Source: Theileria orientalis strain Shintoku (Eukaryota > Apicomplexa > Aconoidasida > Piroplasmida > Theileriidae). From it: a DNA stretch of 64,000 nucleotides. The stretch spans positions 124,001-188,000 of the forward strand of contig NC_025261.1 of assembly GCF_000740895.1 (NCBI RefSeq), read 5' to 3'. This document shows, one piece after another, positions 5,044-47,335 of the stretch; the first letter of the stretch is position 1; each line of letters opens with the position of its first letter. Below the pieces are notes generated by a model. The model searched no databases, was not told where the DNA came from, and saw only the letters and a program-made list of their open reading frames with translations. Both the position numbers and the translations under genes were made by a program.

Positions 5044-6566
5044 CTACTTGTTTTTAGAGTCGAGTGCGAGTGCTATCTGGACCAGGTTTTCCTTGTCTTC
5101 CTCGCGAGCCTCCGCCTGCGACTTGAGGGCCTCTCCCGAGCTCTGGCACTGATAATTGTACGGCACGCGCTTCAAAAATGACAGGTCGTTGGGGCACGAG
5201 TCCAGGTTTCCTATAAATCTCGACAGGGATCCCAGCTTTTTTGCGGTCGGCACCTTGTACATTGGTATTCCGTCGCTTCTGTACTCGACGTGGTTCGTCC
5301 CCCTGTTTCCCAGGTTCTCCTCCAGGTCCACCTCGTACCTTCCCTTTGCGTTGATTTGTATTCCCCTGACCATTTTGTCGTTAATCACGTCGTATCTTTG
5401 CAGGTTCACTTCGCTTCCCAGCGGCGTCGAGTACTCCATTCTGAACTGGACGTCGCTGGTCGTCAGGTCCTCTATTTTATCCATCTTTGCCCCAACTTCC
5501 TCTCTGGGCTCTGCGTGTCCCTCCTTTACTTCTATTTCCAGCCTGTTTATCTTCTCCAGCTTGGAGGTTTCTTCTGGCAGCGTCGTGTCTCCTGTATCCG
5601 ACACCCATATGTAGTCATCTTCCACCGCCCTCTTCTTCTTAAATAGTTTATTGTACAGGTCCCTCTGAAACCCAGTCATGTAGCTCGTTCTCTTAGGCAC
5701 GATGTTATACCCGGGCGGTATGTTAAACACCTAAACACGTTTATGATCATAAATCAAAATCTTAAACTACCTTCTCTTTCAGCAGTTCCAACTTCTTGGT
5801 TTCTTGCTCCTTTCTACACCTTTGCAGTTCTCTCATGCACGCCTTGTCGTCCCCTCTCGGTATCTGGTACACATTTGATTTCCATCTCAACTCACGTTAG
5901 TTTCAATGTTGTAGTCCTTAAAATACCGATTTAAACTTCCGAGTAGCGATGTTACTGCTTCGATTTCCCTGAAGGCGAACTCCGGCACCACCAATTCGTT
6001 TCCGTCCAGGTGTATTTTACATATTGAATACATTCCTATCATCACTGATGCCAGATCCGACAAATCCGGAACGTCGTGTTCGACCTATATTTTATGAATC
6101 TGACTTGTTATATTCATACTTGTTGGTATCTTCTGCATCTGCTCTTCTTACTGCAGCCTCTACACACTTGCAGCTCTGGAATACCAAAAAAGTTTCTCAA
6201 CTTTTTGGAAGACTTCATAATATTACTGGGCATCGATTCTATTGGTCGTAGCAATCTAAAATATTTTAAATTAGAGGTGTTTTACTGGTACACATACACT
6301 TTTTTGTTCGGGCAGGTCACTGGGCATTCCATGGAAGATAGCTTTAACAGGTCCTTCTTATCATTCATTGATAATGTTTGGATGAATTTAGTTATTGACC
6401 TTCCTCTGGTTGAGTTGAGAATGGATTTTTTCAAATCTACTCTGTTAAACCTCTTTGCGTTATCCAATCCGCAACATTCTGTGGCAAATTTCACCAAATT
6501 AGTCATGTATTTAACACATTCATCTTTATAGACCGATACCGTGTTTGTGACGGCTGATTTTATCAT
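5044..6566 (-). CDS. Conserved unknown protein with Cys cluster
   Basis: Five exons on the minus strand (6566-6286, 6255-6120, 6084-5896, 5863-5771, 5730-5044) join in phase across 30-40-nt introns to give about 461 residues. I do not recognise the family. The N-terminal 90 residues are basic and Ser/Thr-rich, possibly an organelle transit peptide. Around residue 130 lies a compact cysteine motif, CRGCSKKSRCRRY, that could bind a metal. A helical segment (DLASVMIGMYSICKIHL) follows, then a charged C-terminal half with many Glu/Lys and few hydrophobic stretches. It faces DXR tail to tail (54 nt apart) and shares a 238-nt divergent upstream region with VPS18. Gene structure is well supported by phase; the role is unknown. 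Confidence 0.7.
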
Positions 6567-14034: not shown

Positions 14035-16541
14035 CTATAGAAGGTCGAATGTTTCCGGCCCTGCGCTCGGCTTCGGCGCCTGGAACTGCGGCTGCTGGCT
14101 CCGCGCCCTGGCGCTCAGCAGCTCCGCGTTGAAGTCCGTGTTGTCGAAGAGGTCCAGGTTGTTGTCGATGTTGCTGGATATCGACTCGAGCGACTGCTGC
14201 GGCGCCCCGACTTCCCGGGTCGTCTTCTGACCAGTGTTCTCGAAGGACAGCGCGTCGAAGTCGAACGGGTCCGGGTTCTTCTGCTCCACCTTGGTCTCCC
14301 TAGCGCTTTCCTGTATGCTCGTCGTGTTGCTGAAGAAGAGGTCGAACTCGTCCAGGTTCGATCCCACTGGGACCAGCGCCGGGTTCGCTTTGCCGCTTTT
14401 GTTTGCAAATATGTCCTCTGACTTCCCTTCCAACGGGTCTCCTTCCTTCTGCTGTACCATGTCAGCGGAAGTCTCTCTTTTCAGCGCAGACGCGCTCGTG
14501 TTACTGCCAAGCATGTCGCCGCTTGTGTCGCTCTTTCCAAAGAACTCTGACACTTCGTCAGTCACTCCGCTTCCCTTCATGCTTGACAGCATCGTCAGCA
14601 GCTTTGAGGCCTTGTTCGACAGCTGCGCCTCCTCCTTGCACTTGTTAAATATTGGCGTCGCTGTCTTCTTCAGCTCCTTAACCAGCGCCTCGTCCAGGCC
14701 TCCTCTCTGGAACAAGGATTCAAATATGCATAGTATTCTAAAGTGCGTCTGCCACTTCGGCGACCTTGCGTTTAAGTGCTTCAGCAGCTCTTCCACCACT
14801 ATCTTCTTGTCCAGTTCCTTCATTTTTTCCATGTACTCGTCGATCAGTCTTGGCGATGGCGACACCTTGATTCCTGTGAACGTGAGCATTTCCTTCACAA
14901 ACTCCACTTCTCGCTCCCCTATTCAATACATGTTATACGTTATATTACACGTTACAAGTTAATACCGTACATGTTACAAGTTAAGTATTGTATTATGCAC
15001 ATCTTGTCATATGTTATACGCTAAATATTGGCAATATCTATAAAACAACATCCAATGCAACCAAATTTACGAGGTAAATACATATCATCGGCAGTGGCGT
15101 ATACCTAATACTCACCTGGAACTGTGTACTTTGACGTTGTGCTCTCTGTTGCCAGCAGGTCCACAGTCGGCTCCGCCTTTGGTTGAAATGATCCCGCCGA
15201 GCCCGCCCTTTGGAAACTCGGCGTGAAGCTCTGCTGCTTCGTGAAGGGGTCGAAGCCCTGGTTTATGCTTGATGCGTGGCTCAGGCTCTGCTGCTGCGAA
15301 AAGGCTGTTGCGCTAGACGTGTGCTGCATGCTCCCGTACCCCTGAGGGCCAAATGGCTGCTGATTAGCGAACGGCTGCGGGGTGTACTGTGACTGACTGT
15401 AATGCTGCTGCGGCTTGTAACCCACTGCGCTGTACGACGCTGGGTTATACGCGCTCGGCCCTCCCCCTGGCTGATAGTTTACGCTGCCTTGGGTTCCTCC
15501 GAACCCTTGCTGCGTCGGGCCGAATCCTTGTGGGTGGCTGCTTCCGTAGCCTCTGCTATTGTACATCGAGTTGTTGAGGCTCTTTGATGCGCTTCTTCCC
15601 ATTGGGCTTCTTCCTCCCAGGTACTTTTCAAACTGCTCTGTTGCTGTCGACGTTATTGCTGAGCCCACCTTTTCCAGCTTATCTCTGATTTCCGACGGTA
15701 TGTACTTGTTTGCTGCGTGCGTGATCATCTTCAGTGCGTTGTTGCCTGCGTTTTTAAGCTCCGACACTGTCGGCGTGAAGTTGCTTGCGAACGAGGTGAA
15801 ACTGTTCGAGTTTGTGCTCTGCCTCCTCGGCATGTTCGGGTTTCCGAATCCCATCATTCCTGGGTTCCCGTAGCTTCCCACTCCTCTGTTTACTCCCTGA
15901 CTATAACTTGTGCTTCCGTGACCCATGTTAGGGTTATAGCTTGTGTTTCCATAGCTTGTGTTAGGGTTATAGTTTGTGTTCCCGTAACCCATGTTAGCGT
16001 TATAACTTGTATTAGGGTTACTCAGGTTCGGGTTTCCGAACCCTCCTGGTGCTTGGTAGTTACTCGACTGGTTTGTGTACTGGTTATTTCCGAATCCTAC
16101 CATTTTATTTTGCTGTTGCGACTCCGTCTTGTTTCCTATCGAGTCGTATGAACACACTACTTTTATCAACTGTTCGAACTCTGATCTTACTAGCTTCGAC
16201 AGGTATTCTCCGTTGTATTCGTTTGCCGGTGTTCTGTAGTTTTTACACTCTAGTACTGCTGATGACTGTGTTACTTTCGTTCTTATGAAGTCCTTTGGGA
16301 AATTTGTGCATAAATGTTTCAGTAGTTTTAAACACTTGATTTTTATGAACGGCTCCTTTCTTGACAGCTTATTGATGATGTATTCTTCTATTTCGTTTAG
16401 CTTTGACAGGTCCGTTTTTATGTATTCTACCAATTCCTTGTATATGTATCCTGGAGGTGATTCTGAGCTTGCTGATGTCAGTTTACTTAATTGATTTTTG
16501 TACGATGAACTCAATGAATCGACAAATTCACTATAATTCAT
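14035..16541 (-). CDS. Tepsin/epsin-like adaptor accessory protein (ENTH plus VHS-like)
   Basis: Two exons (16541-15116 and 14918-14035) join in phase across a 197-nt intron, long for this window, giving about 769 residues. Residues 1-130 form an ENTH/VHS-type helical domain (a LNEIEEYIINKL segment, then FIKIKCLKLLKHLC). A long Asn/Gly/Tyr/Gln-rich disordered linker follows, with repeated 'YNxNxxYGNTxY' units near residues 170-240. The second exon adds a further helical domain (VEELLKHLNARSPKWQTHF) resembling tepsin's VHS-like module. The C-terminus carries short acidic-hydrophobic motifs (DPFDFDAL, DEFDLFF, DLFDN, final DLL) typical of adaptor and clathrin binding. Apicomplexan epsin-like protein works with AP complexes in Golgi/endosomal coats. 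Domain assignment is good; choosing tepsin over epsin is inference. Confidence 0.75.
14919..15115 (-). other. Long AT-rich intron of the tepsin-like gene
   Basis: This 197-nt intron contains several imperfect copies of an ACATGTTAxAxGTTA-like motif (positions 14928-15020 on the plus strand). Its GT donor follows codon CCA-G and its acceptor restores frame. It is five to six times the usual intron length here. Confidence 0.7.
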
Positions 16542-17954: not shown

Positions 17955-18026
17955 GGGCTTGTGGTGTAGTGGTATCACGTTCGCTTCGCATGCGAAAGAT
18001 CTCGGGTTCGATTCCCGATGAGTCCA
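17955..18026 (+). tRNA. tRNA-Ala (anticodon CGC)
   Basis: The 72-nt cloverleaf is complete. The acceptor stem GGGCTTG pairs with TGAGTCC (some G-U pairs), the D-arm contains TAGTGGTAT, the anticodon stem TTCGC/GCGAA encloses loop TTCGCAT (anticodon CGC, codon GCG), and the T-stem TCGGG/CCCGA encloses TTCGATT. The discriminator is A, and CCA is not encoded. It lies about 0.5 kb upstream of eL29. Confidence 0.95.
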
Positions 18027-18545
18027 GTATTAAATGGTGAGGATTAGAAGGTCAATATAACAAGTAATTGCCTTGGAAGTATCGAAGTTAACGCTTAAAA
18101 GGGGGTTAGGGGGTTACAATAAAGTAATGTGTAACTGTCTAAATTTTTTTATAACACAAATTCTATTAACAAAAGGCTATAAGTTCTAACTAGACATGTG
18201 TATAACTTGGGATTAGCACGATATGCACATTATGTATTAACAAATTCATATGTATTGTATTTTTTAGTGGTTGCAAGACGGTGTGGGCCTTATAAAACGG
18301 CCATCTTGTGGATCAAGTCATTTTTTATCATTTCATACTAATTATTTCAAAGTGTTTATGTATATTTGTTATTTATATGTTACTTTTTACCATCCCCATA
18401 CCGGGTCACATACCTTTTGACCCACATGTTATCAAATCGACTTTTACTTTAAATCAAGTAAATTATATTCACTTATCTTCAAAGTATTGTTTTTGATTTA
18501 ATTTTCTATAGAAGATTACAATTATAATTCTTATACATTTCCAAA
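18027..18545. other. Spacer between tRNA-Ala and eL29
   Basis: About 520 nt. A G-run (GGGGGTTAGGGGG, near 18099-18113) and a T7 tract near 18145 lie downstream of the tRNA; the T tract may be a Pol III terminator, but it is over 100 nt away. The remainder is AT-rich and presumably holds the eL29 promoter. There is no supportable ORF. Confidence 0.35.
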
Positions 18546-19101: not shown

Positions 19102-19173
19102 TGGACCAATCGGGATTCGAACCCGAGACCTTTTGCGTGCAAAGCAAACGTGATACCCCTACACCATCGGCCC
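19102..19173 (-). tRNA. tRNA-Ala (anticodon TGC)
   Basis: Read on the minus strand, the 72-nt gene begins GGGCCGA and ends TTGGTCC plus discriminator A. The anticodon stem TTTGC/GCAAA encloses loop TTTGCAC (anticodon TGC, codon GCA). The T-arm has TCGGG-TTCGAAT-CCCGA. The D-arm carries TAGGGGTAT. It is a second alanine isoacceptor, about 200 nt downstream of eL29 on the opposite strand. Confidence 0.95.
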
Positions 19174-19401: not shown

Positions 19402-20720
19402 ATGGCTGATTCTAATCTTGTTCTTCCTGGTGACGTTGTTAGCTCTGACGCTTCCTACCTTCTTCAGGGCCATGGTACTCATGTCTCTAGGAACGAGCTG
19501 AAAGCTAGCTATTCTGGTCTCGTCAAACATGTTAGTCTCTCTGTAGCTCATATTTTCTGTTTTCACATGAAATACAGTAGTTTATGTGCCTATTTATCAG
19601 TAACACATACACTTATTTACTTTTATTCGCATATATTTATACATTCGTATTCACGTATTCACATACTAACTCGCTCTTCTACTCATTCACTCTTGTTTCT
19701 AATGTTCCAATTTCCTTAGGTGAACCAGCTTGTGTATGTAGAGCCCTTCAGTGGCAGGTACATGGGTCAGATCGGCGATATTGTGATTGGCATTGTCGAG
19801 AGCATTCAGGGCAACAAGTGGTTTCTCGACGTCAACTCTGTCGAGAGGGCTCACCTTTCCATTCTTCAGGTGAACACTGAGGAGCTTGCCAACCGCCGCA
19901 AGATTGATGAGGACGTTTATGAGATGAGCAATCTTTTCCGCGTCAAGGACATTATCTCTTCTGAGATTCAACGCATTTCTGTACGTTTACTTTTCCATTC
20001 CTTCTCATATTTTTTTAGCCCAGTGGCACTATCATTTTACAGACTCGCACTAGCAAGTATGGCAGACTTGACAATGGCATTCTTGTTGTCGTTCGCCCTA
20101 ACCTCGTCATGAGGCAGGTAAAACACATTTATGACATGGAGTGTGGCGTTAGGGTCATCATGGGATGTAACGGTGCGTTTACTTTTATATGTATGTATGG
20201 AATTTATTATTTACTTCACTTATACCTTACACACACATTTATCTACCACCAACACACACACATTTATCTACCATTAATACCACTTACACATATCTACCAT
20301 TAATACCACTTACACATATCTACCATTAATACCACTTACACATATCTACCATTAATACCACTTACACATATCTACCATTAATACCACCTGCACCTGCACA
20401 TTTCTACCATTAATACTATGCACATATACACACATACTTTCTCATAACTGGTCTCAGGATATATTTGGCTAACCACTTGGATGACTTCTGACAAGGGCAA
20501 CATTCTTTCCATTGGCACCTTCTCATCCAATGTTAAAACTGATTTAATAAAGAAAGTCTGCATTGTTAGGAACATTCTTCTAATGTTCTCTTCCCATCTA
20601 ATTAAGTTAAACTTTGATCTCATTAACAGGGCTTTCGGCGTCTACTCCAGGCTGTTCCCTGGTAAGTACAACCTGGACAAACTCATGGAAACGTCACTCT
20701 TATCTCACCTCCAGGCCTAA
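19402..20720 (+). CDS. RRP4: Exosome complex component Rrp4
   Basis: Rrp4 is an S1/KH cap subunit of the RNA exosome, guiding substrates into the 3'-5' degradation channel in nucleus and cytoplasm. Exons 19402-19530, 19720-19980, 20019-20172 and 20458-20720 join in phase to about 268 residues. The N-terminus has LPGDVV and GHGT; the S1 domain begins VGDIV-like at GQIGDIVIGIVESIQGNKW and ends HTRSLKYG-like at LQTRTSKYGRLDNG; VECGVRVIMGCNGYIWL-type residues introduce the KH region. I chose the acceptor at 20018 because it restores the family's beta-strand before TRTSKYG; a nearer one at 20042 would delete it. The first intron is 189 nt. The third (285 nt) contains a minisatellite. In-frame TTG codons upstream were ignored in favour of ATG at 19402. 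Confidence 0.92.
20235..20417. repeat. 26-bp minisatellite in the RRP4 third intron
   Basis: Tandem copies of a 26-nt unit (CACATATCTACCATTAATAC plus CACTTA) run through the intron. About four are near-perfect, with degenerate copies at both edges. It lies wholly within the 285-nt intron and does not affect coding. Confidence 0.9.
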
Positions 20721-21187
20721 TTAACACACTCACACACACTTATTATAACATCTTAATACTCACTCCTTATTTTAAATCTCTTCTAAATTATACTTGAATT
20801 TCTACTCGTGCATCTGGTTAACTTAACATGTCATTTTACTTATGGGTTAATGTGTCAATTTACTCATGTATCAGGGCAACGACGTGTGCTCATACTGTCA
20901 TCTCGTACTTTCTAATCTCACACTCAGGGTTACTGTAGACTATTGTCGTTCTAACTCAATGTATTAGGTGCTTAATGTAGCTTGTTTGTTACTGTCGCAT
21001 GAAGCCGCCATATAACTATGGTGGTGATTAAAACAGTGTTTGTATAACCGTCCATGATTAAGGGATCTTTGCAGACACCTATGCCCAGGAGGTATTATCG
21101 AGCCCTAGTGGCTCCCGCTTTCGTCGCCACTCTCTCTCCAGAGCTTCCAGTTAATACATAAGTGTATATTGAATACGGTATATCAAA
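20721..21187. ncRNA. Structured non-coding region, candidate RNA gene
   Basis: The interval between RRP4 and RPL5 has no supportable ORF. From about 20870 to 21160 its base composition rises above the usual AT-rich spacer. Two hairpins are plain: CCGCCATA (21005-21012) pairs with TATGGTGG (21017-21024) around TAAC with one G-U pair, and GAGCC (21100-21104) pairs with GGCTC (21110-21114). I could not match it to U1-U6, SRP, RNase P or U3 by eye. A stable small RNA is plausible but unproven; strand is not determined. Confidence 0.3.
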
Positions 21188-22502
21188 TTAACTCTCATTG
21201 ACAAGCAAAGCGATCTGAAAGAGGATTAGTTTATGCGTATGTTTATGAATATGACTGCGTATAACAAAATATCTGCCGAAATAGCTACAGTAGTATCTAC
21301 AGTAAAATCGACACTAAGATCTAATGTAAAATCTACACTACTATCTAATGTAAAATCTATGTTTATGCGTATTTCGAACTTACCTTCTGTCTTACGCGCT
21401 CTCTCTTCTGCGCCTTCGTGGTCTTCACGTTGCGCACGTACGAGCCCTTGGCAGTCAGGATCCTGCTGCCCTCGCGCACGTGCTTCACCTCCCTCTTCGG
21501 CTTCGTCGGCAGCACTGGGTTTTTCCTTATGTTTTCGTGCGCCTTTGCGTACATGTCCTCCAGAGACTCGCTGTCGAGGCCCAGCTTCAGGTATGCGCTG
21601 AACTGCTTCTTGTACTTTTCCGGGTCCTCCTCCTTCAGGTACTCCATGTAGCTGGCCACGTGCGCTCCGAATATTCTGTCTCTGTGCGCCTGTGCGTCGT
21701 AGGTTCCGTTATTTTCCTCGTCCACGCTGTAGCCTGGGAACCTTTTTTCTGAGTGCGGCACGTGCAGTCCTCCGTCGCATGCTCCCTTGAGTGCTCCGAA
21801 CACTCTGTTTCCCGTCGTCACGTTTTTGACTCCCACGTCCAGCAGTGCCTTGAACGGGCGTCTTTCGTTGTCCTCTTCCTCCACGTGGTAGAGCTCTCCG
21901 TCCACTTCCACCTTGCCCACGAACTGCGAGTCCAGCTTAAGCTTAGTCAGCAGCCTTCTTGCCAGCAGCAGTCCTGTGCAGTAGGCTGCTGCGTAGTTCG
22001 TCAGACCCACTTTCACTCCGTAGTGCACCAGTTCTGATGAGTCAGCAGACGCGTGTACCTTGTCTCCCACGAGTGTCGACGATACTATTTGACAGATCAC
22101 TCTTTTGTTCGTCAGTCTCACCACCAGGCGGTACTTCGGCGAGTCATACTTGTTCTTGTCCTGTGCCACCAGTCTCTTCCTTGCGTAATAGTCCGTTTTC
22201 CCCTCTACATATTATTTGTAAATGTTGAAGATTTTGATCTAGTGTTCATACTAAGACTATAATGAGCATTCACACTTTCTGATTCATTGTTACAGACGAC
22301 AGGTCAAAGTATAACAATTTTTATACTTCGGTTTAAGTCGGTATTTATTTACGCCTCATGATCAATTTTACATCATGTTGTAACTTTGTAAATTTTACAT
22401 ATGGCGAGTATTTATGTATGTAAACTTACCCCTGCGGCGGCGAAACTTGACTTGGAAGCGTCTAAAGTACGCTTTATTTTTTACAATTCTCAGGAATGCC
22501 AT
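21188..22502 (-). CDS. RPL5: 60S ribosomal protein uL18 (RPL5)
   Basis: This is the 5S-rRNA-binding protein of the large subunit. Exon 1 (22502-22430) encodes [20 protein letters not shown]; a 225-nt intron leads to exon 2 (22204-21384) with [11 protein letters not shown], a [12 protein letters not shown] strand, [20 protein letters not shown] and [21 protein letters not shown] family segments. Exon 2 ends AAG|GTAAGT, a strong donor. Reading through gives six more codons and a stop at 21363. Splicing to an acceptor at 21215 gives the short exon 21214-21188 (IALLVNES), which better resembles the extended C-termini of eukaryotic RPL5. I prefer the spliced form, about 306 residues, but the 3' end is uncertain. 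Confidence 0.93.
21215..21383 (-). repeat. Imperfect repeats in the RPL5 3' region (probable last intron)
   Basis: Several imperfect copies of a TCTAATGTAAAATCTACACTA-like unit (plus strand 21270-21360) lie just downstream of the strong splice donor at 21383. Their low complexity supports an intron here rather than coding sequence. Confidence 0.55.
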
Positions 22503-23726
22503 TTTTGAAAGTTGTTCTCAAAGAATTAATTCTTTTTTATTTACTTTTATCAAAATTTATGTTAGTTTATTTGTGGTTATACACCATAAAAGATTTTATG
22601 TAAATGTTTTCAAACTAGGATATTTATTGATGTTTGGGTTTCAACATATATCCGCGAGGTTTGGTATAAAGGTAACAAATTAAATACAGAGTAAAACTCG
22701 AACTAATTAATCTATTATGTTACAAATGGGGGTACTAATAATGTCAAGTCACAAATTGTTCCGTTATAGTTTTATTCAATAACACAATCTATATTCATTC
22801 ATACTATATAATTGATCTGTGACTGTCTAATTTATTTTAATTTATAAAATTTGGAAACTTTTATTCAATGGTTAATACAATTAACATCATCCGTTCTCAA
22901 AATATATATGCACCAAACTTCAATCATGTATAAATATATAAGTATAACATATAAATAATGAAGATTCTATATATTAATCAGGTGTTTAAGTATTCAATAG
23001 TTATCTACACACCGTGTACTATACATTTATTACTGAATTATGCAATAAAAGATTGTCTTCCATTGACGAATTGGACTTTTATAACCCTTTCATTATAAAC
23101 ACATTCGTCTATGATGAGCAAAATAATAAATAAATTTAAATAAAGGGATCAAATAAAGAATTAGAGGGGTGTTATATAAATTTGGTCAAATAACCGTCAA
23201 ATAGGTATAGAATGATTTGTTTAATGTAAATTTAGTTTTTTGATAAATTATATTTGATATTCATGGTTTATTTATAATTAATGTTCAGATTCGTTCGCCC
23301 CGCAATGCATAAACGATTATACACTGAAACAAATTTTTTTGGATCTGTGAGACAGAAGGGTTCAGGCTATAAATTATGTGTTTTAACAATATTCGAGCCC
23401 GAATATAAATGGTAATGGTCACCGTTTATAGATTCAACATCCCCATATGACTGGGGCATGAATTTTTTAGAATCTGGCTAAACTAGCATAAATTTGCATA
23501 TAATTTTTTACTGGTTTGTTCAATTTCAAACCAACAGATTTAATATTATAAAAAATATTTAATTTTCGGGATTTATTGAAGGTTTGTTTTTTATTTTAGT
23601 ATTTAATTTATCATGTGTATAGTTAACTTATTGCTTTTGAGCTTCCTGTACTTTTTTCCCCCTATATAATTTACAAATTTTATGTACGTGAATTGTGATT
23701 GATTTTACTTAATATTATCTTTGTAG
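22503..23726. other. 1.2-kb spacer upstream of eL8 with possible small RNA
   Basis: Most of this stretch is AT-rich with no ORF that I can support. Positions 23281-23490 stand out, with several perfect hairpins and two Sm-site-like T-runs (listed separately). The last bases (TTTGTAG before the ATG at 23727) look like a splice acceptor, so eL8 may have a 5'-UTR intron. Confidence 0.4.
23281..23490 (+). ncRNA. Candidate Sm-class small nuclear RNA (unassigned)
   Basis: Along about 200 nt I see two Sm-like sites, AAATTTTTTTGG (23330-23342) and GAATTTTTTAG (23460-23470), each beside hairpins: TCTGT-GAG-ACAGA (23344-23356), ATATTCG-AGCC-CGAATAT (23389-23406), ATAAATGG paired with CCGTTTAT (23405-23429) and CCCCA-TATGAC-TGGGG (23441-23456). 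This arrangement of stem-loops then Sm site resembles spliceosomal snRNAs. The diagnostic U1 5' end, U5 loop, U6 box and U2 branch-binding sequence are not present, so no identity is offered. The strand is inferred from Sm-site orientation. Confidence 0.3.
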
Positions 23727-24533
23727 ATGGCTCCATCTGGTAAAAAGAGTAAGAAGCAGCCCGCTCCGGCTCCTTTGGCCAAAGTAGTGAAGGCCACAAA
23801 AGTTAAGAACCCAAATTTTGAGAGAACCCCTCGTGATTTCGGAATAGGCCGCGCCATTCGCCCCCGAGTCAACCTGTCTCGTTACGTTCGCTGGCCCAGG
23901 TACGTAAGAGTTCAGCGCCAGCGCCGCGTGTTGCTCCAGAGGCTCAAAATCCCACCATCTCTCAACCAGTTTAACTACACAGTCGATAAGAGCCAAGCGT
24001 TGCAGTTGTTGAGATTTCTGAGCAAGTACAAGCCCGAGACGAAGAAGGAGAAGGCCGCCAGGTTGCTGAAGGACGCCGAAACAGTGGCTTCAGGAGCAGA
24101 GTTGGCATCGAGTAAGAAGCCATACATGCTGAAGAGTGGTTTGAACCACGTTACCAACCTAGTCGAGTACAAGAAGGCAAAGCTCGTAGTTATCGCTCAC
24201 GACGTGGATCCAGTGGATCTGGTCCTCTGGCTCCCAGCCCTCTGCAGGAAGAAGGAGGTGCCCTACTGCATTGTCAAGGGGAAGAGCAGGCTCGGTAAGT
24301 TGGTACACCAGAAGACCGCAGCAGTCGTGGCAGTGGACAACGTGAGGAAGGAGGACCAGGCAGAGTTTGACAACCTCGTCAAGGCCTTCATGCCTATGTT
24401 CAACGATAACGCCGAGTTGAGGAAGCGCTGGGGAGGACACGTCATGGGAATCAAGTCGCAGCACTTGATAGCGAAGCGTGAAGCCCTAATCGCCATGGAA
24501 AACGCGAAGAAATTAGGATTGACCTATAACTAA
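23727..24533 (+). CDS. RPL7A: 60S ribosomal protein eL8 (RPL7A)
   Basis: A single-exon gene of 268 residues, the usual size of the family. It opens with a Lys/Pro-rich tail (MAPSGKKSKKQPAPAPLAK), then NPNFERTPRDFGIGRAIRP and LSRYVRWPRYVRVQRQRRVL, followed by the L7Ae/L30e RNA-binding domain (GLNHVTNLVEYKKAKLVVIA, HDVDPVDLVLWLPALCRK, VPYCIVKGKSRLGKLV, KTAAVVAV) and the C-terminal WGGHVMGIKSQHLIAKRE. It is a component of the cytosolic large subunit that also binds kink-turn RNA. The 5' flank ends in a splice-acceptor-like TTTGTAG. Confidence 0.97.
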   Translation: MAPSGKKSKKQPAPAPLAKVVKATKVKNPNFERTPRDFGIGRAIRPRVNLSRYVRWPRYVRVQRQRRVLLQRLKIPPSLNQFNYTVDKSQALQLLRFLSKYKPETKKEKAARLLKDAETVASGAELASSKKPYMLKSGLNHVTNLVEYKKAKLVVIAHDVDPVDLVLWLPALCRKKEVPYCIVKGKSRLGKLVHQKTAAVVAVDNVRKEDQAEFDNLVKAFMPMFNDNAELRKRWGGHVMGIKSQHLIAKREALIAMENAKKLGLTYN

Positions 24534-27001
24534 CCTACTTAATTAAGTATTTATGTACTTACATGTCATAGATACTGTTCTTATTAGGCTCGAGGCTTTT
24601 TAAAGTCTTTTAAATTGGCTATTTCAACGACTTTTAAATTGGCTATTACATTGACCTTCTAATCGGCTATTATAATGACCTTTAGGTTGGCTTTTATAAT
24701 GAGCTTTATGTTGCCTTTTTTAATGACCTTTGGGTTGGATATTCAGTCTTTTAAATGGCTATTTTATGACCTTTAGCTTGGATGTTTCAATCAATTTTAA
24801 ATGTAGATTAAACGTAACGAATCGGCTTGAAGATGTGACCATAAAATGATGAGATAATTTACAGACCTGTTCTGACTACAGATGAAATAAGTAATCTCTG
24901 ATTATAATCAGCTGCGAAGCCACGTGAGGCTGTCACGCAGACTCTGCCAGTAGCAGCTTAAATTAACGCTCTAATAGGAACCATATTAAGTATAATATGG
25001 GCCGCACGACGTACAAACAAAAGTGCGCATTGTTGGATATCATATAACGTGTGCATTGTTGATACAAACACGACATGGTTAAACTCAAGGCTATTAACCG
25101 TGTGTACTGCTAACGTGGGTGTAGTGATGATAATGACTCTTTTACCATCTTTCGGGTCTGAAGAGGCTGATGAACTTGTAGATCTGATAACCCATGAAGC
25201 AACAAATCCGTATCGATTGAAATATACAATCGATTGTGGCGCCGGGGATAAAGCCAGGCGCCTCGCATGAAAAGGCAGGTCATAGTGTATCCTATGGCTT
25301 CGTTGAACATGCGTACAATAACAGAGGGATAGTTAGTCGCATTCTAATGTGACTCGTTCCCCCCTCTAATAAATCTCTATTCTCACTAGGTACGTAATCA
25401 TGGTTCGGCTACCGTAGGTTGTCCGAAGATACCGGAACCCTAGGTTCAGTTGGAGATCCATTTCAAGGTTATAGCTTTCACATCGGCTGTGCTAAGTTGG
25501 TCCTTTTATTTCATAACTGTGCCCACTAAGTTTCAGTCTGAGCACCAATAGCGTACATTTGTGTATTCTTTGCGCTGAGTCCGTCGCGACTATGCATGTT
25601 GCATACATGGTTCAATTGTATATACAACCAGGGTAATCGATCATTGCTACAGATCCGGAAACACATATAATCGAATGTTAAGGTCACGAGTTTCACGACC
25701 CTCGACGTCAACATTGACGTACATGAGTCCAAGTTATTATCACTTGACTTAACCAGGCGTACATGAGGTCCAAGAGAACGTTTCGAGGAGTTAATCTATG
25801 CATATTTCTAGATTGATGGTCTAGCCAAGTTTGAGCACTCGACGGTTTATACTAAATGTTCGACTATTTATGAAGAAGATTCATATTGCCGATTCGTCAA
25901 AGATACCTACTGATTAGTCTACGATAGTACTAAATAGGATTAAATACGAGTAGAAGTACTTAGGAACTGTGTGCTAAAGTAGTTGTACTAGGAAGCTAGT
26001 TCATGAGCATAACTACGAGTTGTTTACATGGGATCCATGCTAAGAGTAGTCCTACATACGATTAGCGTTACCATATAGTTGAGGAGTTAGTCTACGATAA
26101 GTAGTGCATAGGAGATAAGTCCATGAGCATACTTTACGACTATTGCATACTGATGTTAGTCTGAAGATTCATGTTTTGTAACTTTACGAAGTCAGCTCTT
26201 TAAGGGAACGAGTAATTGGAATTTATAATAGGAAATGAGGATAAAATTAGGCCACGTCAATTCGGAATTCCTGGAAAGGAATTGGCCATCTTGCAGTAAG
26301 AATTCATCTCTTTTTAGTACCTTAAAATGAAAATTAGCATTCACTGATGAATCACTCGGTCATTTATTCGACGGAAACAAGTAATTCCTTTTCATGCGTT
26401 TTCAGAGTTATTTCTAACCAGTTAAACCCAAAGACAGATTTAAAGACTTGAGGAGATTTATAACGTCCCTTGAGACGGTTGATGCGAGAATCATATACCG
26501 GTAAAACGTGATTGGTACCATTCTTAACTAGTCGTCTTAATAAGGCCCCCGTATCTCGATAGCTGCTCCTAATTAACTATCGATAATTAGCCAGTTGAGA
26601 TAACTAGTTGAATACCTATCGATAAGTATCCCGAAATTAGATATATAAGGAGTGCAGAAATGATGACTGAGCCTTCGTTCTTGTCGAAAAAGAACGTAGG
26701 ATTCCACTCTGATCTCACTCACGCGGCCCAGTGTTCCTGGGCACCTTCTTGCTTCCACTTCCTTTGCCTTTCTGGGTCGACTACATTGTTATTTACCTAG
26801 TTCTTTAGATAGTTACTTATTTCCCCTCGTTAGACCTTTCTTGCTTTACTACGTAGCTATTCAGTTAGATAAGTGCCTTTATCGCGCTCCCTTAACTACA
26901 TGTATCTTAATTTCCTGCTATGTACAATACGTGGTTACGCATTTTGTGGTTAGATATGCGGGTCTGTATGAGTGTAGGTAGACAGTTATCAAATTAGCAG
27001 C
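24534..27001. ncRNA. 2.5-kb ORF-less, hairpin-rich locus, candidate non-coding RNA(s)
   Basis: This is the longest gene-free stretch in the window. The first 250 nt are T-rich repeats of a TTTTAAATTGGCTATT-like unit. From about 24840 to 26760 base composition is more balanced than in other spacers and no coding signal is apparent; the few 60-75-codon open frames show no family resemblance. Strong stems include AGCTGC/GCAGCT (24910-24958), CCATATTA-AGTA-TAATATGG (24981-25000), ATCGATTG/CAATCGAT (25212-25234), GGCGCC/GGCGCC (25238-25262), a two-part hairpin (25323-25367), CGTTCTT/AAGAACG (26676-26696) and GCCCAG-TGTTC-CTGGGC (26726-26742). Short motifs recur within it, for example TTAGTCTACGATA at 25914 and 26087. 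I infer one or more structured RNAs; none is identified. Confidence 0.35.
24590..24800. repeat. Degenerate tandem repeat downstream of eL8
   Basis: About seven imperfect copies of a roughly 26-30-nt unit built on GACCTTTxxxTTGGCTATT follow the eL8 gene. They mark the start of the ORF-less locus. Confidence 0.7.
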
Positions 27002-27964
27002 TTAGACATTCGGTCTCAGCAGGTACAGCACTGTGTCCACGATCAGCGCAACGAAGGAGAATGCGATGCCGATGAGCGTCCTCTGAACGAGTTAAACTGA
27101 GACGACTTACGTGGAAAGGGTCCTTCACTCCCAGGGCGCCGGAGATCGAGTAGGCTCCGACGAACGTCAGGGCCACTCCGAAGATGATGTTCAGTCCTGA
27201 ACTGCGGGCATTACGCGGGGAACTTACACTATGGGCGGCCTGAACTCGAAGACCTTGGTCTGCTGCGACGTAAACAGCTCCCGGATGTCACGAGTCTGGC
27301 GCTGGTACTTGATCTCGTGGGCCAGCTTCTTGCTCCACTCGATGTCCACTCGGTCCTCGATCACGGGGAACTTCCGCCCTAAGGCACTCATGTGAACACG
27401 CACTTTGTATGTGGCAATGGGCACTCGTGTAGGCCAAAACCTGCGTGTTGAGCCGCCACGTTGGGGTGAGTATGTACTTAAATAAGGGCGTGTGTACTTA
27501 AATAGGGGCGTGTAAGGTCGCGGGGACTAACGTGTTATTTTTGCGTTCTTCAGAATGTCGGCCAGCTTAAACTCCACGTGCTCCATTTCCGGGTTCTCCC
27601 TGACCATGAGGTCGTACGAATCCACCTGCGCTCGCTATTAACTGTTGACTGGTACCAGAGATATGAAGGCGTCGAGGTGTAAGTCGTTCTCCAGAGTCAT
27701 TTGGGCTGCCACGTTCAAAAGGTTGTCCTCGAGGTCTGGCGGGTCGGTCAGGTCCTCCGGTTTAGCGTCTTCCGACGCTGTGGACGCCTCGCTGAACCTG
27801 GCCCTGCGATATGGATTTTTGCCGTTCTGTGTGTGTTCTTCCTCCTCTTCCTCAGGCTCAGGCAGGCTCAGAACCTTCCTTCTGAACCTTAGGTACTCTT
27901 TTAAAAAATCTTCCACCTCTGTTGTTTTGCAAAAATAAGCAGCTGAGGATGTAGAAGTGCTCAT
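27002..27964 (-). CDS. Two-pass C-terminal membrane protein, Vma12/TMEM199-like
   Basis: Five exons (27964-27656, 27625-27532, 27423-27228, 27201-27111, 27082-27002) give about 256 residues in phase. I placed the third exon's acceptor at CACGAG|TG because the nearer GCAG breaks the frame. The N-terminus is acidic and disordered (a run of six Glu). The C-terminal quarter holds two hydrophobic helices (GLNIIFGVALTFVGAYSISG and TLIGIAFSFVALIVDTVLYL) with a short loop, preceded by HEIKYQRQTRDIRELF. This order, with a YQR-x-R segment before a C-terminal helical hairpin, resembles Vma12/TMEM199, an ER factor needed to assemble the V-ATPase. The resemblance is topological and motif-based only. It shares a divergent promoter with LAS1. 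Confidence 0.6.
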
Positions 27965-44637: not shown

Positions 44638-47335
44638 CTACTCTTCCGTCATAATTTTTTTGATTCTCTCCACTCTATCTGTGATTGCGAACTCCACTTC
44701 TTTTTCCAGTGGTATTGCCTTTAGTATTTTCTAAAAATCGGTTATAGCAACCAGTATAGCTGTTTCTACCAATGCCAATGTTACTGCTATACTATAGTTA
44801 CTGCTTAATCTATTCCTGTTTATATTGGTTCTTACATATTTTAATCTTGGTTCATCCATGAAATTTTCCACCGTTGCTTTGATTTTAAATACGTATTCCT
44901 ACTCGTGGTTTGCTCCTCTTTCTTCGCTTACTGTTAGTCTCACTTCTTCAAAATAGTTTGCAAAATTCTTCCCCGTTTCGTCCGTTCCTCCATTTTCCAT
45001 GAGCTTCACTAGGTTATATGCCTTCGTTCCCATTATCGACTGCACATCCTCTTAACCAATTGCTCCTTACCTCTCCGACATCCGTCATTGCTGTCACCCA
45101 CATGTGTGACGTCTCGTCCACTATTTTCAGCGTCAGCATGTACCTAATCATTTTCTGTCATCTTCTCCAATTTACATGTGCGTTGGGGTTCCTCTGTTTT
45201 CGCATCTCGGACAGTACCATCCGTCGTCGTTGTTCATCCTCTTGCGGCACCCTGGGCACGATCTGCGAGTCTCATTCTTGCTTCTCCACTTACGGCCACG
45301 AGAACGTTCCGTCCTTTAGCACTTCTATCAATGCTCTCGTTGTGAATATCATTCCGTTTGAGTCAATTGCTATCCTCATTTCATTACGCCTTCAAACTTA
45401 CACTTGAACTGCAGCGCTTGATTCGTTGCTGATATGATTTCTGCCAGTGAGCTCATTTGGTTAAACACTTTCGAACTCGATCCTCTACTCGTTTCCGTTC
45501 CAAAATTCAAGGTGTGCGAGTTCTAAACACTCTTTCACATCTCCACTTTACCTCGTTCCACCACTTTCTCAGCTCCAGTGCTTCTTGTATCACTGGCTCA
45601 AATATTACTTGCGTCGATCCCATCACATCCAACTTTTTTCCTTGCCACTCTATCACTTTTACTCCTATTATTAAATCAGTTACTTAATTGATCAATCAAT
45701 CAATTGTTTAATTGTATTTTTACATCATTTACGCTAATTCACCTTCATACATGGTAACTGCCTTTTAACTACCTACTCAACTACCATAGTCCTGTATCTA
45801 CTTTCTTAAGCACTTCCATATTTAACTGCGTTTACTTCTTTCAAGTGCTCGCTTACCTTTGAGGCACACCAGCGGGTGCGAGTCCGGGCCTTCGTAGTTG
45901 AAGTTCCTTATCTTCGGCCCCCAGCTCGTCAGCCAAATGCTCGACTTCGTAGAGTCGCAGATCAGGAAGTCTCTCTTTTCCAGCGCCTTCCCCGTGGACT
46001 ACTCGTTCATCTTCTCTTATTGCTTACCTTCACTTGCACCGTCTGCAAATCTTTTGCCGTCACCACCACTCCAATAACGTCTATTTGTTCTCCCACCTTC
46101 AGGTTCTGTATTTGGTCCAGCGGCGTGAACGAGAAGCAGAAGGACGGTATTGTGTCGTCGTTCTGGAAGAGCTGTATGTGGCAGTGTTCGTCCAGCACCA
46201 GCTCGCACGAGTGCCTCAGGCTATTGAACTTCTTGTTCGCAGGCTTCAGCTGTCCTCCGCTGATCGAGTACACCTGATCGTTATACTGAGGCTCTCATCC
46301 TACCTGGCCTTCCTCCAGGAACGTGTACCACTTGTTCACCGACTCTCCGAAGAACGTTGCTCTGATCTCTCCCTGCGACACTTTTATTCATTTGCAACCT
46401 ACGTTCGAGTCGCACAGATCCACTGAGAACAGCTGACTTTCTCCTCTCTGGTTGTTGAACTTCCTTATGTCCGACCTGATCGTCTCTTCTATCTTTCCCA
46501 CTTACTTGTACGCCACTCTTGCTCTTATCAGCCACTTCGGTGTGTACAGCGTCAGGTCCGAGATTTTAGTCGGCGGTATTTCGAGCTTTTTCTTCACGTT
46601 TTTCGGCGGCTCGTATGGGTTTGAGATCGTCTTCACTGATCTCACGTTCTCCTGCTTCCTCACTGGACCTGACTCCTTCGTGTTCTCTTCCTTCTTTGGG
46701 CTTCTAATTTCCTTTAACTTTTCCTTCCACTTACTTGTAGCTTTCGTCTTGCTCAATTCCGAGTCCCTGAATTATTTTTTTTCCAACTTCCACTTACTGG
46801 GTGATACACCAGTGTAGGAATCAGGTTTCCTATTAGGTGTCTGTAGTCGCCTGGAACCACCGAAATCCTCGTCAACACTACCAAATATCTCGATCTAATT
46901 TAATTTTACTTCGATTTTATTCTCTTACCTCGTTCTTGCTATCTTGTATTGGTTAAAACTGATTATTTTCCCTATCAGTTGTCGATCTCCGTCCGGTGAA
47001 GGTGGAACTAGTGCCAAGCACGTATGTTTGTACGCGTATGGCACTGTCCCATCTATTGTTTCTATTCTACATAGTTATTTATTTCAATTTTTACATATGT
47101 CTTCTAATTACAATGTGTGAGCCCGTTGCACACACTTTTCTATCTATTTATCTATTTTTTGCTTTCACTGGACTTACAGGTATTTGTTGTCTGCTATACA
47201 CGACTGTTCTAGGCAGAGAAGCTTTACTGGCACTTGGCATTCGTGGACTTCTTGGAAGTACTTCTCATTCGCCGTAGTCACTGCTTCTGCCAACTGTGTG
47301 AAGAAATCTTTTGACAATATTCGCGGCAACGACAT
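44638..47335 (-). CDS. RPA1: Replication protein A large subunit
   Basis: RPA1 is the main single-stranded DNA-binding subunit in replication and repair. It is heavily split, with at least a dozen short exons over 2.7 kb, starting at MSLPRILSKDFFTQLAEAV (47335) and ending KKIMTEE (44638). Rebuilt blocks include RQLIGKIISFNQYKIARTR (N-terminal OB region), TLYTPKWLIRARV, IRKFNNQRGESQLFSVDLCD and GEIRATFFGESVNKWYTFLE (DBD-A), VYSISGGQLKPANKKFN, SFTPLDQIQNLKVGEQIDVI (the DBD-A/DBD-B signature), KRDFLICDSTKSSIWLTSW (DBD-B), and the DBD-C zinc ribbon CPGCRKRMNNDDGWYCPRC followed by RGTPTHM. I checked the phases of most but not all C-terminal junctions. The N-terminal protein-interaction domain appears shorter than in animals. 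Confidence 0.92.

What the first reader, a model, noticed from the sequence alone, without database searches (positions are those of the whole stretch)
24534..27001. Long ORF-less locus with coding-like composition and many perfect hairpins
In a genome with typical spacers of 0.2-0.6 kb, this 2.5-kb gap has balanced base composition, no plausible protein and repeated strong stems. It could encode one or several structured RNAs (RNase P/MRP, SRP, telomerase, snoRNAs) or a long non-coding RNA.
Basis: partly seen in the sequence, partly recalled or inferred. Interest (0 to 1): 0.75.

Follow-up and report, generated by a model that had tools for sequence, protein, structure and literature searches.

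The report
Ribosomal-RNA-modifying guide RNA gene cluster
This gene-free stretch just after a ribosomal protein gene in a cattle blood parasite appears to hold a cluster of small guide RNAs that tell the cell where to chemically modify its ribosomes, in the same genomic spot where malaria parasites keep some of theirs.

Summary
The gap is real and ORF-less. Most of it has higher GC (39-42%) than two neighbouring spacers (27-32%), but its hairpins are not clearly denser than elsewhere in the window. Best reading: a plus-strand snoRNA gene cluster directly downstream of eL8 (RPL7a). Two box C/D snoRNAs (24841-24905, 25117-25193) carry guides for the conserved 2'-O-methylation sites yeast SSU Gm1428 (snR56) and LSU Gm805 (snR39b). 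Two box H/ACA snoRNAs (24910-25019, 25264-25374) have pockets whose best rRNA targets are yeast Psi2880 (snR34), Psi2944 (snR37) and human Psi4401 (SNORA21). A third C/D RNA (26650-26720) is tentative; 25375-26649 stays unexplained. In Plasmodium falciparum, C/D snoRNAs with the same two guides are published at the RPL5/RPL7a genes; a uL18/RPL5-eL8/RPL7a pair is also present here, so the association looks ancestral. RNase P, SRP and U3 RNAs match elsewhere in this genome, and no telomerase template was found. New member of a known kind; my literature searches listed no description in Theileria. No transcript data, Theileria rRNA or relatives were available; targets were tested on stand-in eukaryotic rRNAs.

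The parts
23727..24533 (+). eL8 (RPL7a) ribosomal protein gene, 268 aa; likely host or upstream partner of the cluster
   Evidence: PF01248 E 4.3e-23; PDB eL8 chains, best E 1.1e-131
21363..22211 (-). uL18 (RPL5) ribosomal protein gene (stop-to-stop frame), divergent from eL8
   Evidence: PF17144 E 3.4e-74
24841..24905 (+). box C/D snoRNA 1: C box 24846-24852, guide 24859-24871, D' 24872-24875, D 24898-24901, stem ATAA/TTAT; predicted 2'-O-Me at yeast SSU Gm1428 equivalent (snR56)
   Evidence: snR56 34.7 bits (gathering 54), E 0.019 locally; best of 5 genome-wide hits, E 6.1e-5; guide pairs with SSU AACAGGTCTGTGA (the SSU sources were found by that word, so their agreement is by construction); scan score 13.7 vs 12.3 maximum in 100 shuffles; best window match of P. 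falciparum PFS10
24910..25019 (+). box H/ACA snoRNA 2: 5' hairpin 24910-24958 (no target found), H box AAATTA 24960-24965, 3' hairpin 24966-25012, ACA 25013-25015 or 25017-25019; 3' pocket targets LSU CGGC-UC-UUCCUAU = yeast Psi2880
   Evidence: target score 11.0 against 5.7 for the next; scan; position by A-loop anchor; coordinates
25117..25193 (+). box C/D snoRNA 2: C box 25124-25130, guide 25142-25157, D' 25158-25161, D 25184-25187, stem GGGT/ACCC; predicted 2'-O-Me at yeast LSU Gm805 equivalent (snR39b)
   Evidence: snoMe28S-Am982, SNORD111, SNORD96, all below gathering; guide score 15.3, three LSU sources; scan 16.7 vs 12.3 maximum in 100 shuffles; shares CTTTCGGGTCTGAAGAG with PFS8; SNORD96 top of 2 genome-wide hits, E 0.04
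25264..25374 (+). box H/ACA snoRNA 1: hairpin 25264-25313, H box ACAATA 25315-25320, hairpin 25323-25367, 3' box ATA 25369-25371 (variant of ACA); pockets target LSU CGACG-UU-GCUUUUU (human Psi4401) and GGGAACG-UG-AGCUG (yeast Psi2944)
   Evidence: MFE -37.4, z -5.5, 0 of 200 shuffles; both targets 10.8 vs next 7.8 and 8.7; top structural H/ACA hit of the window by a small margin
26650..26720 (+). tentative box C/D snoRNA 3: C box 26660-26666, D 26709-26712, stem GAGTG-c-AGA / TCTCACTC; guide uncertain (TTCGTTCTT 26674-26682 also occurs in PFS12, SSU Am974)
   Evidence: one of 4 C/D-like elements in the window; guide score not above shuffles (8.6); no Rfam match
24615..24743 (+). imperfect 24-bp tandem repeat array (5.4 copies) between eL8 and the first snoRNA
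25375..26649 (.). unexplained remainder of the locus, GC 0.39; holds a diverged tandem duplication (25919-26018 / 26040-26139) and a stable hairpin (26520-26610)

Best explanation
The locus is a snoRNA gene cluster on the eL8 strand, in the order C/D - H/ACA - C/D - H/ACA (24841-25374), possibly with a further C/D at 26650. I infer that the RNAs are cut and trimmed out of one long RNA, either the eL8 3' UTR or read-through transcript or an independent polycistronic transcript. Each C/D RNA would then assemble with fibrillarin, Nop56, Nop58 and Snu13 and direct 2'-O-methylation (SSU Gm1428 and LSU Gm805 equivalents). Each H/ACA RNA would assemble with Cbf5, Nop10, Gar1 and Nhp2 and direct pseudouridylation around the peptidyl transferase centre (yeast 2854, 2880 and 2944 equivalents). 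Shown here: boxes, folds, guide complementarity to conserved rRNA of other eukaryotes, gene order. Inferred: transcription, processing, modification in the parasite.
For: C/D: 3 of the 4 C/D-like elements in 64 kb (both strands) lie here, all on +; 300 mononucleotide shuffles of the locus averaged 0.08, none had 3. Two elements score above the best of 100 shuffles. The guide register (fifth base from D') gives the G residues that I equate with the published Gm1428 and Gm805 sites. H/ACA: a hairpin-plus-target scan gave 3 hits on +, 0 on - in the locus; 1 of 400 shuffles had 3 or more. The targets, anchored on the A-loop in both LSU sources covering it, are yeast 2854, 2880 and 2944; 2880 and 2944 are published Psi sites. 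2854 equals human 4401 by spacing in an Entamoeba table: 4412-4401 = 2865-2854 = 11, and LSU3087-2997 = 90. Context: P. falciparum PFS8 and PFS10 carry the same guides at RPL7a/RPL5, and their best matches in the whole window are these two genes.
Against: No Rfam match reaches gathering, and both snoRNA models also ring below cut-off in control prokaryotes (8 and 4 of 14). No transcript data. Theileria rRNA was not found in the held assembly, so targets rest on other eukaryotes' rRNA; the SSU sources were collected with the very word that the first guide reads, so their 5-of-5 agreement is not independent. The LSU Gm805 target is perfect in 3 of the 5 LSU sources that cover it; two differ by 2-3 bases. 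Guide 1 alone (12.3) is not unique: one minus-strand motif scored 12.8 against a single source and a shuffle reached 12.2. H/ACA 1 has ATA instead of ACA. H/ACA 2 has a bulged lower stem, a box distance of 12 or 16 and a 5' hairpin without target; it was noticed by eye, and the scan was then widened to allow a bulge and distance 12. The same scan has 10 further hits in the rest of the 64-kb window. With looser settings the three stay on top but the best (18.3) barely exceeds the best of 25 shuffles (18.1).
Confidence: 0.9

Rival explanations
1. A single long non-coding RNA (regulatory lncRNA) whose snoRNA-like pieces are chance.
For: Higher GC than two spacers; the locus is ORF-less; most of 25375-26649 is unexplained.
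Against: Five guide duplexes on conserved modification sites, in the right box register and on one strand; matching guides at the Plasmodium locus.
Confidence: 0.03
2. The snoRNAs are real, but the stretch 25375-26649 is a separate non-coding RNA gene (for example divergent RNase MRP) or a long UTR unrelated to them. (Compatible with the best explanation for 24841-25374.)
For: 1.27 kb with GC 0.39, a diverged ~121-nt tandem duplication (score 48 against a maximum of 41 in 60 shuffles) and a stable hairpin; MRP RNA not found elsewhere.
Against: No Rfam match in the locus up to E 5 besides C/D families and one bacterial sRNA; folding there is ordinary on the whole.
Confidence: 0.3
3. RNase P, SRP, U3 or telomerase RNA.
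For: Length and lack of ORF only.
Against: RNase P, SRP and U3 RNAs match elsewhere; no telomerase template of 8 nt or more.
Confidence: 0.01
4. A decayed or intron-rich protein gene.
For: Raised GC; frames up to 124 aa.
Against: No Pfam match at cut-off in any of the four frames of 80 aa or more; guides and boxes occupy part of the GC-rich stretch.
Confidence: 0.02

Closest known systems
Plasmodium falciparum RPL7a/RPL5 snoRNA group (PFS8, PFS9, PFS13 downstream of RPL7a; PFS10-12 at RPL5), PMC2656528
   Same: RPL5 and RPL7a genes with consecutive names (PF14_0230/0231), snoRNAs on opposite strands behind each (divergent order inferred from the table's coordinates); C/D snoRNAs behind RPL7a; same guides for Gm805 (17-nt identity with PFS8) and Gm1428 (PFS10).
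   Different: Here the Gm1428 guide sits behind RPL7a rather than at RPL5, and H/ACA genes are interleaved; counterparts of PFS9, PFS11 and PFS13 were not recognised.
Yeast snR56 / human SNORD25-type C/D snoRNA
   Same: Guide and register for SSU Gm1428.
   Different: Below the Rfam gathering score; in the genome search only model positions 2-46 of 84 aligned. The name SNORD25 is recalled.
Yeast snR39b-type C/D snoRNA
   Same: Guide and register for LSU Gm805.
   Different: The Rfam hits were to other C/D families (snoMe28S-Am982, SNORD111, SNORD96), below gathering.
H/ACA snoRNAs snR34, snR37/ACA10 and ACA21
   Same: Target residues 2880, 2944 and human 4401.
   Different: Sites are combined differently (4401 with 2944 on one RNA; 2880 on another); no sequence relation shown; ATA instead of ACA in one.

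Membership tests
box C/D snoRNA | C (RUGAUGA) and D (CUGA) boxes 40-110 nt apart | tested here: met
   24846/24898, 25124/25184, 26660/26709; the element at 25124 was closed by an earlier CTGA at 25167
box C/D snoRNA | Terminal stem beside the boxes | tested here: met
   4 of 5 pairs for 1 and 2, 8 bp with a bulge for 3; the stems of 1 and 2 are offset 1-3 nt from the boxes and scored only 2 in the stricter count
box C/D snoRNA | 10+ nt rRNA antisense element directly upstream of D or D', fifth base on the methylated residue | tested here: met
   RNAs 1 and 2; not met for RNA 3 in the stand-in rRNAs
box H/ACA snoRNA | Hairpin-hinge (ANANNA)-hairpin-tail fold | tested here: met
   25262-25375: MFE and centroid are exactly this, z -5.5; 24906-25022 partly
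box H/ACA snoRNA | ACA box 3 nt from the 3' end | tested here: inconclusive
   RNA 1 has ATA; RNA 2 has ACA at distance 12 or 16; true 3' ends unknown
box H/ACA snoRNA | Pocket pairing on both sides of a target U about 14-16 nt upstream of the box | tested here: met
   Three of four hairpins; not met for the 5' hairpin of RNA 2
snoRNA (any) | Stable small RNA bound to fibrillarin or Cbf5, and modified target residues | not testable with these tools
   No RNA data held
RNase P / SRP / U3 RNA | Match to the family covariance model in the locus | tested here: not met
   No match in locus up to E 5; matches elsewhere
telomerase RNA | Template complementary to more than one TTT(T)AGGG repeat | tested here: not met
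   No permutation of 8 nt or longer, either strand

The most novel reading that the evidence does not exclude
The RPL5-RPL7a pair with snoRNA genes behind it is an ancestral 'ribosome island' kept since before Plasmodium and piroplasms split. In Theileria it has become a mixed C/D-H/ACA polycistron that supplies three guides to one 90-nt stretch of the peptidyl transferase centre, tied to eL8 expression, and its unexplained 1.27 kb encodes further lineage-specific RNAs.
Probability: 0.35. Interest if true: 0.5.

Novelty: new member of a known kind. Interest (0 to 1): 0.36.

Why it matters
It turns an anonymous 2.5-kb gap in a livestock parasite into at least four predicted guide-RNA genes with named target residues, gives concrete positions to test in Theileria ribosomes, and suggests that the linkage of snoRNAs to RPL7a, reported from malaria parasites with one snoRNA in the RPL7a 3' UTR as a novel gene organization (PMC2656528), is older than Plasmodium.

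Tried and rejected
Rejected: RNase P, SRP, U3, telomerase RNA; protein-coding; general over-structuring. A first H/ACA scan was not discriminating (78 distinct hits on +, 47 on -, 45 in one shuffle); a loosened one hardly so. Weak D-box-adjacent rRNA pairings occur in numbers on both strands and in three shuffles. The tandem duplication gives no convincing common fold (2 sequences, -2.1 kcal/mol). No snoRNA was recognised behind uL18: Rfam gave none at E 1 in 20000-24533, and in 20500-23726 the six PFS sequences gave only short matches without C/D form. The own-genome 14-nt complement of the LSU guide occurs only in the snoRNA itself, and none of the 6 other places with the 11-nt SSU complement looks like 18S in the 100 nt that I read: rRNA seems absent from the held assembly. 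Of the eight MAG contigs, SSU pieces of five and LSU pieces of five were used; L027 and L028, the short SSU piece of L026 and the short LSU piece of L025 were left out. L024 had no Rfam match at gathering and was not used.

Full report
Setting. The window is G000:C2:124001-188000 of a 9.01-Mb, six-contig genome with TTT(T)AGGG telomere repeats. I take it as Theileria orientalis from its size and the finding's own hint; no call names it. The gap follows a 268-aa eL8 (RPL7a) gene at 23727-24533. A uL18 (RPL5) gene lies divergently upstream at 21363-22211.

The observation. No convincing protein is encoded: four frames of 80 aa or more, the longest 124 aa, none with a Pfam match at cut-off. No second copy was found. 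GC is 0.39-0.42 over most of the stretch, against 0.27 and 0.32 in two neighbouring spacers. The hairpin claim fails as a general statement: tile z-scores resemble the rest of the window, with a slight excess of tiles below -2. Stability is concentrated at 25262-25375 (z -5.5) and, with boundaries chosen afterwards, at 26520-26610 (z -4.6). An 80-nt tile just after the eL8 stop scored z -4.6, which 100-nt tiles did not repeat.

First lead. Rfam at gathering finds only two tRNAs in the window. Below gathering, two places in the locus draw C/D-box snoRNA families repeatedly: 24839-24907 (snR56 34.7 bits, E 0.019) and 25115-25195 (snoMe28S-Am982, SNORD111 and SNORD96, E 0.026-0.045). Genome-wide, the first is the best of five snR56 matches (E 6.1e-5; next 0.23), and the second the best of two SNORD96 matches (E 0.04 against 0.5). 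Control prokaryote genomes also ring below cut-off for these models (8 and 4 of 14), so E-values alone would not settle it.

C/D anatomy and targets. Only 4 C/D-like elements were found in the 64-kb window on both strands, and 3 are here, all on + (300 shuffles, mean 0.08, none with 3). Theileria rRNA could not be retrieved, so I used eukaryotic rRNA from MAG contigs found with an SSU word and identified by Rfam. RNA 1 pairs TTACAGACCTGTT with SSU AACAGGTCTGTGA. All 5 SSU sources carry that word, but they were collected by it, so this says only that the word is eukaryotic SSU. RNA 2 pairs TTACCATCTTTCGGGT with LSU ACCCGAAAGATGGTGA, which is perfect in 3 of the 5 LSU sources covering it; the other two differ by 2-3 bases. 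Counting five bases from D', the methylated residues are the G of AACAG and the G of ACCCG. I equate these with yeast Gm1428 (snR56) and Gm805 (snR39b), which are listed in PMC8307265 (table passages seen) and are the sites given for the Plasmodium RNAs with the same guides. Scores 16.7 and 13.7 exceed the best of 100 shuffles (12.3). The third element, 26650-26720, has an 8-bp bulged terminal stem in its MFE but no guide above chance (8.6).

H/ACA anatomy and targets. The MFE and centroid of 25262-25375 form two hairpins around an ACAATA hinge. It is the highest-scoring structural H/ACA candidate of the whole window on both strands, by a small margin (32.7; next 31.3 and 31.1), and above 60 shuffles of the locus (maximum 28.4). 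Its two pockets have outstanding targets: CGACG-UU-GCUUUUU (10.8, next 7.8) and GGGAACG-UG-AGCUG (10.8, next 8.7). In a scan with 30 dinucleotide shuffles they ranked first and second, 20.2 and 20.0; one shuffle's top hit reached 21.5, but the best second hit was 18.9. A second H/ACA at 24910-25019 was noticed by eye. Its 3' hairpin pairs CGGC-UC-UUCCUAU perfectly (11.0, next 5.7), while its 5' hairpin has no target. After I allowed one bulge in the lower stem and a box distance of 12, the scan returned exactly these three hairpins on + of the locus and none on -; 1 of 400 shuffles had three or more. The same scan has 10 further hits in the rest of the window (8 on +, 2 on -). Under looser settings the three stay on top, but the best (18.3) barely exceeds the best of 25 shuffles (18.1).

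Where the three targets lie. I anchored the A-loop UGU as yeast 2921-2923: Um2921 is given as E. coli Um2552 in PMC11121408 (passages seen), and Um2921, Gm2922, Psi2923 are in the table; the loop sequence itself is recalled. Both LSU sources covering the region then put the targets at yeast 2854, 2880 and 2944. Positions 2880 (snR34) and 2944 (snR37) are published pseudouridines. The Entamoeba table in PMC3542256 (passages seen) lists LSU2997 = ACA21/human 4401, LSU3008 = snR46 2865/human 4412 and LSU3087 = snR37/ACA10 human 4491 (it prints 2499 as the yeast position of snR37, where one search has 2944). The spacings 11 and 90 equal 2865-2854 and 2944-2854, so the first target is human Psi4401 (ACA21 also in PMC6466398, passage seen). 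That three pockets fall on three known sites is, to me, the strongest single result.

Relation to Plasmodium. PMC2656528 (abstract and two of three parts of Results seen) places PFS8 (LSU Gm805), PFS9 and PFS13 downstream of RPL7a on one strand, and PFS10 (SSU Gm1428), PFS11 and PFS12 at the RPL5-family gene on the other strand; that the two genes are divergent is my inference from those coordinates. It shows by RT-PCR that PFS9 is in the RPL7a 3' UTR, and reports that PFS11 and PFS12 share one transcript. When I aligned six PFS sequences to the window, the best match anywhere on either strand for PFS8 was 25149-25173 (17 identical bases running through guide and D') and for PFS10 was 24845-24875. 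PFS9, PFS11, PFS12 and PFS13 gave nothing convincing; PFS11 and PFS12 each share a short word with the tentative RNA 3.

Mechanism. By analogy with that paper, the cluster is probably released from an eL8 3' UTR or read-through transcript, or from an independent polycistron. Direction (same strand) and distance (about 310 nt from the stop codon) fit either. The guides would then direct methylation and pseudouridylation. Transcription, processing and modification are inferred.

What remains. 25375-26649 has no recognised gene. It contains a diverged ~121-nt tandem duplication (score 48; maximum 41 in 60 shuffles) without a convincing shared fold. RNase MRP RNA was not found anywhere in the genome. 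These are leads, not findings.

Novelty. Searches for snoRNA + Theileria (20 of 27 papers listed), small nucleolar + Babesia + Theileria + Plasmodium (11 of 11 listed) and T. orientalis/Shintoku/genome/noncoding RNA (8 of 40 listed) showed no title or abstract start describing Theileria snoRNA genes. I judged by the listings, except PMC9323827, where a term search of the text found no 'snoRNA'; subscription papers are mostly not held. I file the locus as a new member of a known kind.

Noticed in passing
window 24615-24743: Imperfect 24-bp tandem repeat array (5.4 copies, consensus TTGGCTATTATAATGACCTTTAGG) between eL8 and the first snoRNA.
   Followed up: no
window 25919-26018 and 26040-26139: Diverged tandem duplication, about 121 nt apart (local score 48, maximum 41 in 60 shuffles); no convincing common fold.
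   Followed up: partly
window 26520-26610: Long, stable stem-loop (z -4.6, 0 of 200 shuffles as stable) of unknown role.
   Followed up: partly
window 24534-24613: Stable hairpin immediately after the eL8 stop codon in an 80-nt tile (z -4.6; not repeated with 100-nt tiles); could be a 3'-UTR or processing signal.
   Followed up: no
window 25190-25262: Two adjacent strong hairpins (z -2.4, 2 of 200 shuffles as stable) in the gap between C/D snoRNA 2 and H/ACA snoRNA 1.
   Followed up: no
G000 (own genome): 18S/28S rRNA appear to be missing from the held assembly: guide complements were not found in rRNA context.
   Followed up: partly
L033, L034, L035 (G000:C1:899593-899804, C3:548057-548319, C1:2091913-2092087): Matches to RNase P RNA, SRP RNA (below gathering) and U3 snoRNA in this genome; RNase MRP RNA not found.
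   Followed up: no
window 5401-5500 +, 14601-14700 +, 18401-18500 -, 47001-47100 both strands: Other 100-nt tiles with unusually stable folding (z from -3.7 to -5.5), not examined.
   Followed up: no
window 17955-18026 + and 19102-19173 -: Two tRNA genes; an RRP4 S1 domain frame lies near at 19720-20112, so several RNA-handling genes are close by.
   Followed up: no
window 27473-27513: Near-perfect 20-bp tandem duplication (TGTACTTAAATAAGGGCGTG) in the region of the downstream minus-strand frames.
   Followed up: no
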